Assembly (NCBI RefSeq): GCF_041260155.1
Contig: NW_027248395.1
Span: 186,001-250,000 of the forward strand
Direction: 5' to 3'
Length of the DNA: 64,000 nt
Source of the DNA: Ptychodera flava
Lineage: Eukaryota > Hemichordata > Enteropneusta > Ptychoderidae
In this document: positions 25,646 to 58,189 of the stretch, piece after piece
How the letters are laid out: every line of letters begins with the position of its first letter
How positions within the stretch are numbered: the stretch's first letter is position 1
Made by a program: the position numbers and the translations under genes
Notes under the pieces: model-generated
What the model was told of the DNA's origin: nothing
Seen by the model: only the letters and a program-made list of their open reading frames with translations
Databases searched by the model: none

Positions 25646-26045
25646 ATAAATCAGTACAATAGATCAGATTTTCAAATATTTAATAAACAAATAATTTAAT
25701 TGCAAATACACTCACTTGGTTTTCCAATATTTCCCTATAGAAATGGCATTTTACAAAAAGTTGCAGTAAATGACGGCTGTGTGATTTTAAATTTTCCAAG
25801 AATTAAATATACTGAATGTTTGGCTTGTCACTGAAAACTACCTTTAGTTGACAGAAAAAACTGGAATAATTAAAATCCTTGAAAATTTGTCTTCAAACAA
25901 AGAAATTGAAATATTTTGTCTAAAAAAAACACAAAGTGAACACATACACTGAATTGATTTTTTCTTTTTATTATTTTATACATATCAATGTGAGACCTAT
26001 AATTTTAACTTCTATTCAAGTAAGAAACAAATACTTTGGCAAATT
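25646..26045. other. Intergenic DNA, nothing firm
   Basis: A+T-rich, non-coding. It ends where the minisatellite array begins. Confidence 0.4.
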
Positions 26046-27275
26046 TTGTTTGGAGGGGAGAAAGAGAGCAAAGAATTTATTGCCTGCATTCTTGTGAATG
26101 AGAAATGGGAACAAAGAATTCGTTGCCGTCATTTGTTGAAGGGGAAAAATGAGGGCAAAGAATTTGTTGCCTGCATTCTTTTGAAAAGAAAAATGGGGCA
26201 AAGAATTAGTTGCTGTCTGTTGTTGAAGGGAGAAATGAGGGCAAAGAATTTTTTGCCTGCATTCTTGTGAAAAGAGAAATGGAGGCAAAGAATTCGTTGC
26301 CGTCATTTGTGAAGGAAGAAATGAGGGCAAAGAATTTGTTGCCTGCATTCTTGTGAAAAAAAAAATGGAGGCAAAGAATTCGTTTCCGTCATTTGTTGAA
26401 GGAAGAAATGAGGGCAAAGAATTTGTTGCCTACATTCTTTTGAAAAGAGAAATGGAGGCAAAGAATTTGTTGCCGTCATTTGTTGAAGAAAGAAATGAGG
26501 GCAAAGAATTTGTTGCCTGCATTCTTTTGAAAAGAGAAATGGAGGCAAAGAATTTGTTGCCGTCATTTGTTGAAGGTAATAAATGAGAGCAAAGAATTTG
26601 TTGCCTGCATTCTTTTGAAAAGAGAAATGGGGGCAAAGAATTCGTTGCCGTCATTTGTTGAAGGGAGAAATGAGGGCAAAGAATTTGTTGCCTGCATTCT
26701 TTTGAAAAGAGAAATGGGGGCAAAGAATTTGTTGTCGTCATTTATCGGATGGGATAAATGAGGGCAAAGAATTTTTGCCGGCATTCTTAGGAAGGGAGAA
26801 ATGGGGCAAATAATTTGTTAATAATATAATAATAATATTTGGTTCTTATATAGCGCACATATCCACAAGTAGATGTGATCAAGGCGCTTTACAATTATTA
26901 TTACCCCTGGTCACTGGACCTAATATTATACCACTCAACTCCCTGGGGAGCAGACAAAAGCTCACATGTGCAGCCAATAAGCGCAGCAGAGCTAAACGCA
27001 CACATAACAACCTCTGTCCTACCAGGTACCCATCACTCCTGGGTGGGGAGAAGCAATGAGGAATAAAGTGCCTTGCCCAGGACACAACACCACAGCCATG
27101 CCGGGGCTCGAACTCACCATCCTTTGATCGTGAGTCCACTGCTCTAGCCACTGGCCCATGATGCCTCCACTGCCGGCATTCTTAGGAAGGGACAAATGGG
27201 GCAAATAATTTGTTACTGGCATTTTGTGGGGCAGGAAGAATTGAGGGTAAAGAATTTATTGCCAGCAGTCTTGGA
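26046..27275 (+). repeat. Left minisatellite array (putative terminal inverted repeat)
   Basis: About nine copies of an ~87-bp unit made of two related ~43-bp halves: CAAAGAATTTGTTGCCTGCA plus an AAAAGAGAAATGG half, and CAAAGAATTTGTTGCCGTCA plus a TTGAAGGGAGAAATGAGGG half. Because the unit contains few stops, long chance frames run through it on both strands. The same unit in reverse complement forms 57160-57935. A SINE interrupts the array at 26821-27172. Confidence 0.93.
26821..27172 (-). mobile_element. Full-length tRNA-derived SINE
   Basis: On the minus strand it begins near the tRNA-like head GGCCAGTGGCTAGAGCAGTG with a box-B-like GGTGAGTTCGAGCCCC. A G+C-richer body follows, then a GCGCTATATAAGAACC end and an ATT-rich tail, an arrangement widespread in marine invertebrate SINEs. 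It sits in the left minisatellite array. The 44-bp sequences on both sides (26776-26820 and 27174-27217) are nearly identical. They are either an unusually long target duplication or two adjacent array units. Confidence 0.85.
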
Positions 27276-28169
27276 AGAAATTAGGCTACATGAGTGTTCA
27301 TGGAAAATTTCATACAATTATCAGTGATTTATCCAATTTGTCCATTCAGACTGGGCACCTCATGTCCTTACAAGGATACTATTACTATTTGAGGTCAGCA
27401 TACTCATTACGGTCCCTAAATTGCTATTTTGCCAGTTCCAAGGAGGTGATGGCTGAACATATTGAATACACAGGCAAGTCTGCATGTAAATGGCCACAGA
27501 TTTTTTATTAATTACAGAAAAATTACACTATACCAAAATTGCCACTATGTGGCCATATTGGATCATTTTGTGAAACAAATCGATGTACATGTGTATAACA
27601 TAAGTCAATGTTGTCATAAATGGTAACAAAATGGCCACCAGGCAGCCATTATATTGCATTGGACTGTGAAACCTATAGACATGCATTTAATGATATGATA
27701 GGTCAATGTTCTTGTACCAACTTTGAAAAAAATACCGTCAAGGACACTATGTGCTCACATTTGGTTTAAATTGGTCCATTCAAGAAATATTTAAACCAGG
27801 AAAATCAAGAATAACAAAAGCAAATAAGGTCTACAACTTAGGTACTGGAGGTCATCTTTAGGAACATGCATTTGAACTTCTTTAGCAATGGACAAGCAGA
27901 TCCTGCAATGGCAAAAATTGCACCAAAAATACAAAATTGCAGATTTAGTTTATCTGTAGGAACCTGTATACCAAATATCAAAGTTGTCAGACGAGTGGTT
28001 TCGATGAAATAAATTTTTGACCAAAAATGACAAAAAAAATTCCTTAAAAATACATATTTGCATATGTCATCACAATTTGAACAATCCAAGTTAGGTTATC
28101 CCTAGGGACCTGTATATCATAATGCTGTCTGACCAGCGGTTATGAAGAAGAAGGTTTAACAGGTGCTGA
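27276..28169. other. Non-coding DNA between left array and transposase-like gene
   Basis: A+T-rich with no recognisable exon. It presumably contains the 3' untranslated region of the minus-strand gene. Confidence 0.4.
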
Positions 28170-28459
28170 CTAATTGCTCATTTTGAGTCTTTCATACTTC
28201 TCTGCCAAAATGGTTTGTGTTCTTTTGCTTAACATTTTCTTGCTGGTGAATTCAAAGTCCCACAGGATTGCTGCAGCCAGATCTTGCTTGTCTTCCCATG
28301 GTACTTTGGCTCTTCCTTTGGTGAGGTAGCATGGTTTCCATGCAGTATTCCATTTGCCTTGGTACCAGTGAATAGTAAACGAAGTACTATCCCTACTGAC
28401 AACTTTTCCAATTTGGGGTACTTCCTCCGATTCTGGACAAAATACTGCAACAAACATTC
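28170..28459 (-). CDS. Last exon of the transposase-like gene
   Basis: After a TAG acceptor the frame encodes FVAVFCPESEEVPQIGKVVS, then HWYQGKWNTAWKPC and a basic end with a stop. It looks like a small beta-rich (SH3/Tudor-like) C-terminal module, but that is only an impression. The acceptor phase differs by one base from the end of the preceding exon as I placed it, so one of the two boundaries may be wrong. Confidence 0.6.
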
Positions 28460-57146: not shown

Positions 57147-57159
57147 AAGAAACATTTGC

Positions 57160-57935
57160 CCACACTTCTTGCCTCCAATTTTCTCCCCTCCTAAGAGTGC
57201 AGGTAAAACATTTTTTGCCCTCATTTATCCCATCCGATAAATGCCAGCAACAAGTTCTTTGCCCTCATTTCTCCCCTTTAAAGAATGCTGGCAACAAATT
57301 CTTTGCCCCCATTTCTCTTCTCAAAAGAATGCAGGCAACAAATTCTTTGCCCTCATTTCTCCCCTTTAACAAATGACGGCAACAAATTCTTTGCCCCCAT
57401 TTCTCTTTTCAATAGAAGGCAACAAATTCTTTGCCCTCATTTCTCCCTTCAACAAATGGCGGCAACAAATTCTTTGCCCCCATTTCTCTTTTCACAAGAA
57501 TGCAGGCAACAAATTCTTTGCCCTCATTTCTCCCCTTTAACAAATGACGGCAACTACTTCTTTGCCCCATTTCTCCTTTCAAAAGAATGCAGGCAACAAA
57601 TTCTTTGCCCTCATTTCTCCCCTTTAACAAATGACGGCAACTAATTCTTTGCCCCATTTCTCCTTTCAAAAGAATGCAGGCAACAAATTCTTTGCCCTCA
57701 TTTCTCCCCTTTAACAAATGACGGCAACAAATTCTTTGCCCATATTTCTCTTTTCAAAACAATTTAGGCAATAAATTCTTTGTCTTCATTTCTCGCCTTC
57801 AACAAATGACGGCAACAAATTCTTTGCCCCCATTTCTCTTTTCAAAAAAATTTAGGCAACAAATTCTTTGTCTTCATTTCTTCCCTTCTAAAGATGGTGG
57901 TAATAAAGTCTTTCCCCTTGTTTCTCCCAAATTCA
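57160..57935 (-). repeat. Right minisatellite array (putative terminal inverted repeat)
   Basis: About eight copies of the 87-bp unit of 26046-27275, in reverse complement (AACAAATTCTTTGCCCTCAT and AACAAATGACGGCAACAAAT forms). The inner-edge unit contains CCCATCCGATAAATG, the complement of the distinctive inner unit of the left array. Outer units are more diverged on both sides. Confidence 0.93.
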
Positions 57936-58189
57936 GTATGCTGGTATTTCAAAACTTTGGGCAAAGAAAAGCTGAATGTACGAGACCGTATAGGAATATG
58001 CTAAATTCAAGAATAAAAATTGTAGCATTCTGATTTCTATGACTAGTTGGTGGAGACAACAGATATTTTGTGGAATAAAATTGGCAAATTAAAATATCAC
58101 ATTGATTTTTGCTCTTTCCTATGGACATAATTCAAAAATCAGTAAATCTCATTTTACAAAAATACATCCCACGGTGTTAATAGTCTTTT

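What the first reader, a model, noticed from the sequence alone, without database searches (positions are those of the whole stretch)
26040..57940. Possible ~32-kb intron-bearing transposon carrying a transposase and a ParB/DNA-methyltransferase-like partner
Seen: two inverted arrays of one minisatellite unit bound a head-to-head gene pair, and nothing similar occurs elsewhere in the window. Known: acidic-triad RNase-H-like proteins act as transposases, and some eukaryotic transposons carry DNA-modification genes. Inferred: the arrays are the termini and both genes are cargo of one mobile element. I cannot exclude that this family has already been described.
Basis: partly seen in the sequence, partly recalled or inferred. 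Interest (0 to 1): 0.92.

Follow-up and report, generated by a model that had tools for sequence, protein, structure and literature searches.

The report
Giant transposon with mirrored repeat ends
A 32-kb stretch of a eukaryotic chromosome looks like the slightly decayed remains of a giant jumping gene that carries a probable cutting enzyme and a possible DNA-marking protein between two mirror-image rows of evenly spaced protein-binding-like sites; it matters because the enzyme family has no known function and such ends suggest how the element may mark itself.

Summary
Inverted arrays of one 87-bp unit lie at 26045-27272 and 57193-57928; elsewhere the unit gives only 11-21-nt matches. They mirror each other down to a matching variant at the inner ends. 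The half-units carry a dyad GCAA-N8-TTGC: 13 per end, 26 of 26 in the window, 1.9 expected. Between them are two divergent genes with introns. The minus gene is Pfam DUF7869, E=5.6e-59 over 192 of 192 positions once six exons are spliced, with acidic triad D-83-D-38-E. The plus gene has weak ParB-like and methyltransferase motif-I matches. A CpG-density scan blind to the arrays picked 24500-59000. Best reading: the relic of a giant foldback-type DNA transposon with a DUF7869 transposase as motor and a ParB-methyltransferase accessory. Such an accessory, opposite the transposase, is in print for a 21.5-kb brown-algal Sola1 element (PMC12477816). Not shown: other copies, empty site, target duplication, activity, host identity. 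New variant of a known kind; the DUF7869 motor and dyad-array ends are the new parts.

The parts
26045..27272 (+). Left terminal array: alternating 44-bp half-units with 13 exact GCAA-N8-TTGC dyads; interrupted by the insert at 26821-27171
26821..27171 (-). SINE-like insertion inside the left array, flanked by a 44-bp direct repeat (26777-26820 and 27172-27215, 1 mismatch)
   Evidence: the SINE label is by reading the sequence printed, boxes recalled
57193..57928 (-). Right terminal array, inverted to the left one, 13 exact dyads; inner-end variant matches that of the left array
28173..38469 (-). Gene 1, DUF7869 (PF25273) transposase-like gene. Exons 38469-37575 (three frame changes by reading), 37005-36884, 35023-34854, 34453-34215, 33768-33729, 32753-32688, 32366-32114; then less certain 30633-30466, 30152-30012, 28459-28173. 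Exons 2-7 join in phase over five GT-AG introns into 296 aa without a stop
   Evidence: chains that add exons 8-10 had at least 2 internal stops
41488..53884 (+). Gene 2, ParB-like plus methyltransferase-like gene. Candidate exons 41488-41792 (frame unsure), 44190-44321, 47020-47189, 47662-47867, 48552-48634, about 50487-50640 (3' border unsure), 50655-50947, 53062-53121, 53730-53884; only 44190-47867 (three exons) and 53062+53730 join in phase
   Evidence: the full chains tried had at least 9 internal stops
47020..47867 (+). ParB-like region in two exons (VRKVDDYFVQTLVDSM ... YKYTILGGQHNYTATKQL)
   Evidence: no ParB family listed by Pfam or NCBIfam
53062..53884 (+). Methyltransferase motif-I-like region in two exons (VVGYWSETGSVFTTALQLGRPCVCLEAE)
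   Evidence: PHROG 8769 methyltransferase, E=0.063; 3 of 1000 shuffles
38480..41480 (.). Space between the two gene heads: CpG o/e 0.85 against 0.38-0.39 in the gene bodies, as expected of a shared unmethylated promoter (inference)
55219..57147 (+). Tandem duplication of about 969 bp, 99.3% identical, just inside the right array
26028..26043 (+). Weak candidate for the left target-site duplicate (CAAATACTTTGG-CAAA; partner at 57950-57965)
   Evidence: 1.6% of random pairs score as well; not conclusive

Best explanation
A relic of one giant cut-and-paste DNA transposon of about 31.9 kb (26045-57928), of foldback type. Gene 1 codes the transposase (DUF7869, an inferred RNase-H-like enzyme with acidic triad D-83-D-38-E). 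[quoted passage not shown] The terminal arrays are rows of at least 13 binding sites each (dyad GGCAA-N8-TTGCC about every 44 bp). Proposed working: one of the two proteins, by analogy with ParB on parS most simply the ParB-methyltransferase, loads as dimers on the dyad rows, marks or protects the ends and helps to pair them; the transposase cuts at the outer edges and joins the element elsewhere. Shown: arrays, mirror symmetry, dyads, gene order, DUF7869 membership, the CpG-poor segment. Inferred: catalysis, ParB and methyltransferase identity, which protein binds the dyads, methylation of the ends, mobility. This copy is probably dead.
For: Inverted arrays with a matching inner-end variant, so mirrored ends and not two chance minisatellites. 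26 of 26 dyads of the window lie in the arrays, with steps of 40-44 bp apart from three double steps of 87-88 (two left, one right); the dyad block keeps 0.88 identity between the two half-unit types while the spacer keeps 0.55. DUF7869 at E=5.6e-59, 192 of 192 positions, in a spliced reading of 296 aa without a stop. A CpG-density scan given no coordinates chose 24500-59000; CpG o/e 0.44 inside against 0.71 and 0.85 outside, and 0.22 and 0.36 between each gene end and its array. The ParB-like and motif-I-like segments match their own profiles better than shuffles and are at chance on each other's. The same pairing, on opposite strands, is printed for the 21.5-kb Sola1-1_Ec32 of Ectocarpus (PMC12477816, passage). 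Tandem repeats in inverted termini that hold transposase sites are printed for Galileo (PMC4079207, passages).
Against: One copy seen; no empty site; no clear target duplication. Pfam lists DUF7869 as of unknown function, and its fold could not be predicted. ParB and methyltransferase matches are weak and the segments were chosen after their motifs had been seen; the motif-IV candidate failed (195 of 1000 shuffles as good), motif I lacks its usual D and one G, and the full gene-2 chains tried had at least 9 stops. Some outer 2-kb bins are as CpG-poor as the inside and some inner bins as rich as the outside. No sign of the family in the collections searched, which hold hardly any eukaryotes.
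Confidence: 0.7

Rival explanations
1. A transposon as above, but the dyad rows are read by the DUF7869 transposase itself (as in Galileo) and gene 2 has nothing to do with the ends. This overlaps the best explanation and differs only in that step.
For: Tandem repeats in long termini hold transposase sites in Galileo (PMC4079207). Gene 1 has a Cys-rich stretch near its start that could bind DNA (reading; no Pfam family there).
Against: A ParB-methyltransferase beside a transposase is also in print for algal elements (PMC12477816), which speaks against a chance passenger.
Confidence: 0.4
2. Two ordinary or domesticated host genes sharing a divergent promoter, flanked by an unrelated inverted minisatellite pair; the CpG depletion is gene-body methylation of expressed genes.
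For: Introns, GT-AG borders, a CpG-rich middle and CpG-poor bodies are what a methylated host gene pair would show; exons 2-7 of gene 1 are still open.
Against: CpG depletion runs on past both gene ends up to the arrays (0.22 and 0.36). Three frame changes in exon 1 of gene 1 (reading). Mirrored inner ends of the arrays.
Confidence: 0.15
3. A large inversion or inverted duplication placed one minisatellite at both ends of a segment; no mobile element.
For: Arrays are inverted and similar; a tandem duplication sits inside the right end.
Against: Apart from the arrays, a self-comparison at E<=1e-4 found no inverted match between the two ends (array-array pairs were dropped there). The 25 of 141 inverted pairs that one search lists all join the arrays; the other 116 were not shown.
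Confidence: 0.06

Closest known systems
Sola1-1_Ec32 of Ectocarpus and similar algal transposons with a ParB-like/DNA-methyltransferase gene (PMC12477816; passages seen)
   Same: Giant DNA transposon (21.5 kb) with a transposase gene and, on the opposite strand, a gene for a ParB-like domain plus an N4C/N6A methyltransferase domain
   Different: Its transposase is classed as Sola1; no Sola profile was at hand, so kinship with DUF7869 is untested. No terminal dyad arrays are mentioned in the passages seen. Host is a brown alga
Foldback elements such as Galileo and Tetris (PMC4079207, passages seen); FB/NOF and sea-urchin TU recalled
   Same: Long inverted termini built from tandem repeats; in Galileo the repeats hold transposase sites
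   Different: Those in the passages belong mostly to the Mutator or P superfamilies or lack a known transposase; DUF7869 or a ParB-methyltransferase is not mentioned there
KDZ (Kyakuja-Dileera-Zisupton) giant transposons (PMC12477816, passages seen)
   Same: Up to about 30 kb, accessory genes, nested insertions
   Different: For gene 1 only DUF7869 was listed and no KDZ model
ParB/parS and YbdM-type ParB-like proteins
   Same: A short dyad as possible site; G-x-H motif in gene 2 aligned to the ParB-like profile
   Different: Similarity is weak (5.4 bits); no ParA-like partner was noticed; a role in partition is not suggested

Membership tests
Pfam DUF7869 (PF25273) | Profile score above the curated cut-off (26 bits) over the domain | tested here: met
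   199.4 bits, 1-192 of 192
DDE/D transposases | Three acidic residues in order with a short last spacing | tested here: met
   D in IIDGMDQ, D in QLDNC, ED in HTHEDVDQ; D-83-D-38-E. The residues were chosen by reading, not by structure
DDE/D transposases | RNase H fold | not testable with these tools
   structure prediction switched off
TIR DNA transposon | Inverted termini bounding the transposase gene | tested here: met
TIR DNA transposon | Target-site duplication of fixed length | tested here: inconclusive
   best direct match at the edges is reached by 1.6% of random pairs
TIR DNA transposon | Dispersed copies and empty sites | not testable with these tools
   no host genome held
Foldback elements | Long inverted termini made of tandem repeats | tested here: met
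ParB-methyltransferase transposon accessory proteins | ParB-like domain | tested here: inconclusive
   no ParB family in Pfam/NCBIfam output; against a 9-sequence profile 1 of 500 shuffles above and one tied, 3 of 1000
ParB-methyltransferase transposon accessory proteins | DNA methyltransferase motifs I and IV | tested here: inconclusive
   motif I weak (3 of 1000 shuffles; PHROG E=0.063); motif IV not supported (195 of 1000)
ParB-methyltransferase transposon accessory proteins | Gene opposite in strand to the transposase | tested here: met
Sola1 superfamily | Sola1 transposase homology | not tested
   no Sola profile or sequence available; Bao 2009 not held
KDZ superfamily | KDZ transposase profile match | tested here: not met
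   only DUF7869 listed for gene 1 (E<=1, E<=0.1); that Pfam holds a KDZ model is recalled

The most novel reading that the evidence does not exclude
A transposon lineage whose motor is the undescribed DUF7869 enzyme and whose ends are centromere-like rows of dyads read by its own ParB-methyltransferase: the element would label, methylate and pair its own ends with a borrowed bacterial partition-type protein, in a host that is probably an animal.
Probability: 0.3. Interest if true: 0.85.

Novelty: new variant of a known kind. Interest (0 to 1): 0.64.

Why it matters
It would give a function (transposase) to a eukaryotic family of unknown function, would extend the ParB-methyltransferase accessory beyond algae if the host is an animal as I infer, and supplies a concrete candidate target for that accessory: a row of near-identical dyads at both ends, which makes the idea of a transposon marking its own ends directly testable.

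Tried and rejected
Relatives: close-relative and motif scans of viral contigs and genome contigs gave 0 hits; the patterns rest on family motifs that I recalled in part. PF25273 rang in 0 of 14 control genomes, which by the tool's own word does not show absence. tblastn of the ParB-like region in phages gave none; of motif I one hit in phages at E=5 (a tape-measure gene) and none in plasmids. These collections hold hardly any eukaryotes.

Target duplication: the inverted comparison of the outer flanks was at chance (17% of random pairs as good); the direct one gave a weak candidate, which may only be a worn half-unit.

Solved structures: no useful relative (best E 1.4 for the ParB-like region, 0.7 for motif I, 0.72 for DUF7869). 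Weak library hits set aside as below cut-off: Pfam Adt-1 on the ParB-like exon (E 0.004-0.03), a poly(A) polymerase model (E 0.06), PHROG 4495 of unknown function on the ParB-like region (E 0.027). Single frames of 44200-54150 gave no Pfam family. The motif-IV candidate near 52120-52310 was not kept. Three LINE- or PLE-like frames that I took as a hint at the host gave no Pfam family (0 of 3; one of the three I had no name for).

Literature: DUF7869 occurs in 0 papers of the held library. A ParB-methyltransferase in a eukaryotic transposon I saw only in PMC12477816 (found); other papers listed in those calls and were not opened. Searches looked for tandem repeats in inverted termini; no search was worded for dyad arrays. 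Iyer 2011, Iyer 2016, Petroll 2025, Bao 2009 and Iyer 2014 are not held, so an earlier animal report there cannot be excluded. PMC9587614 was seen in passages and not used.

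Full report
What was checked. The window is eukaryotic in look (introns, SINE- and LINE-like pieces by reading), has no tRNA or Rfam match, and no genome is held for it. That the host is an animal is my inference from the look of the repeats and the CpG pattern; Pfam did not confirm the LINE- or PLE-like frames I tested, so the host remains unknown.

The arrays. Tandem Repeats Finder reports 87-bp and 88-bp arrays at 26056-26819 and 57240-57887 with reverse-complementary units. BLAST of the unit finds it at 26045-26819, 27171-27272 and, inverted, 57193-57928; four other places score at most 23.3 bits over 11-21 nt. 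The unit is two alternating 44-bp half-units. I extracted 31 half-units that lay 38-47 bp apart (16 left, 15 right); types A and B alternate in both arms with one exception in the right arm. At the inner end of both arms the same odd pair of half-units occurs in the same order (ATTTATCGGATGGGAT, then CTTAGGA(A/G)GGGAG), so the arms are mirror images and not two independent minisatellites. A 351-bp SINE-like insert with a 44-bp direct repeat splits the left arm.

The dyad. The half-units hold GGCAAAGAATTTGTTGCC or a near variant (33 sites within 3 mismatches, all in the arrays), an imperfect palindrome with 5-bp arms. The stricter GCAA-N8-TTGC occurs 26 times in the window, all 26 in the arrays, 13 in each, against 1.93 expected. 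With a slightly wider pattern the steps between neighbours are 42-44 bp on the left with two double steps of 87, and 40-44 bp on the right with one double step of 88. Between types A and B the 26-bp block with the dyad keeps 0.878 mean identity and the spacer 0.547 (240 pairs); within A the values are 0.938 and 0.786, within B 0.877 and 0.806. So the block has not diverged between the types beyond what it shows within type B, while the spacer has. A conserved two-fold site at even spacing is what a row of dimer-binding sites looks like; which protein binds it is not known.

Gene 1 (minus). Exons with GT-AG borders were found by reading and by a simple splice score with recalled weights. Six of them, 37005-36884 to 32366-32114, join in phase over five GT-AG introns into 296 aa without a stop, and a junction restores HTHE|DVDQ. 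This spliced reading matches Pfam DUF7869 at E=5.6e-59, 199.4 bits, positions 1-192 of 192 (a cruder joining gave 2.2e-37). The acidic residues of IIDGMDQ, QLDNC and HTHEDVDQ are spaced D-83-D-38-E. By reading, exon 1 (38469-37575) changes frame three times without room for introns, so this copy is probably inactive. Exons 8-10 (30633-28173) are plausible, but chains that include them had at least 2 internal stops.

Gene 2 (plus). Exons 44190-44321, 47020-47189 and 47662-47867 join in phase and read VRKVDDYFVQTLVDSM...YKYTILGGQHNYTATKQL, resembling ParB N-terminal domains (motif recalled). Pfam and NCBIfam list no ParB family. Against a profile of nine ParB-like proteins (E. coli YbdM and eight phage relatives) the region scores 5.4 bits; of 500 shuffles one is higher and one tied, and 3 of 1000 reach it; the alignment falls on the G-x-H motif. 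Exons 53062-53121 and 53730-53884 join (donor GTGCGG, acceptor TTTGCAG) into VVGYWSETGSVFTTALQLGRPCVCLEAE; PHROG 8769, a methyltransferase, is the only PHROG match of this segment (E=0.063), and 3 of 1000 shuffles score as well against a profile of YhdJ and eight phage methyltransferases. Crossed controls are at chance: ParB region on the methyltransferase profile 261 of 1000, motif-I segment on the ParB profile 286 of 1000. A middle segment (50655-50947) reached the ParB profile with 21 of 1000 and the methyltransferase profile with 412 of 1000; the motif-IV candidate failed (195 and 331 of 1000). The segments were picked after I had seen the motifs, so the shuffle counts flatter them. Motif I lacks its usual D and one G, so catalysis by this copy is doubtful. 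The other candidate exons do not join in phase, and the full chains tried had at least 9 internal stops: the gene is either wrongly modelled there or decayed.

One unit. A scan of CpG positions for the segment that differs most, which knew nothing of the arrays, chose 24500-59000 (14.6 against 24.6 CpG per kb, steps of 250 bp). CpG o/e is 0.44 between the arrays, 0.71 on the left and 0.85 on the right; TpG/CpA is raised inside (1.37 against 1.26); 2-kb bins inside and outside differ (14 and 16 bins, p=0.001). Against this, bins at 1-4 kb and 10-12 kb are as low as the inside, and inner bins at 36-42 and 44-46 kb are 0.59-0.85. Inside, the space between the gene heads is CpG-rich (0.85), the gene bodies 0.38-0.39, and the parts between gene ends and arrays 0.22 and 0.36. 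The depletion is thus not confined to the genes but runs to the arrays. I read this as old germline methylation of the whole segment with a spared central promoter (inference).

Termini. Outer flanks show no inverted similarity beyond chance outside the arrays. A direct match CAAATACTTTGG-CAAA / CAAA-ACTTTGGGCAAA at 26028-26043 and 57950-57965 is reached by 1.6% of random pairs; I do not count it as a target duplication.

Mechanism. Most likely a foldback-type giant transposon: DUF7869 protein cuts and joins, the dyad rows recruit many copies of a dimeric protein, and the ParB-methyltransferase binds or marks the ends. Bacterial ParB binds dyad sites (general knowledge), which is why I favour it over the transposase as reader of the rows, though Galileo shows the other way (PMC4079207, passages). 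None of these steps was tested here.

Known relatives. [quoted passage not shown] The pairing is therefore in print. What I did not find in print with the searches made: DUF7869 (0 papers) and such a pair outside algae (listed papers other than PMC12477816 not opened). Tandem repeats in inverted termini are known; dyad arrays as such were not searched for. Key papers are not held. PMC6431247 was read in outline and section 5 only.

Verdict. Observation confirmed; interpretation partly supported. A probable giant transposon relic, a new variant of a known kind, with an untested but attractive idea attached: the end arrays as targets of the ParB-methyltransferase.

Noticed in passing
62650-63838, minus: An open frame of 278 codons next to one of 127 codons in which MSGPNNFGLGAIHV occurs; no Pfam family, best PHROG E 0.13, best solved-structure E 1.6. 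Possibly a viral or mobile gene of unknown kind.
   Followed up: partly
55219-57147: Tandem duplication of 969 bp at 99.3% identity just inside the right array: very recent, or an assembly artefact.
   Followed up: no
11878-13062 and 16385-17439: Satellite-like arrays of about 350-bp units, inverted to each other, 79% identical, in the left flank.
   Followed up: no
45679-45862 and 47995-48312: Short element with inverted ends present at least twice between exons of gene 2 (up to 93% identical), MITE-like.
   Followed up: no
603-1242 and 60132-60774: A direct repeat of about 640 bp, 84% identical, one copy in each outer flank: a dispersed repeat of unknown kind.
   Followed up: no
26821-27171: SINE-like insert in the left array flanked by an unusually long 44-bp direct repeat, as long as one half-unit.
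   Followed up: partly
2467-2709 and 34065-34170: Long TATG and GA microsatellites.
   Followed up: no
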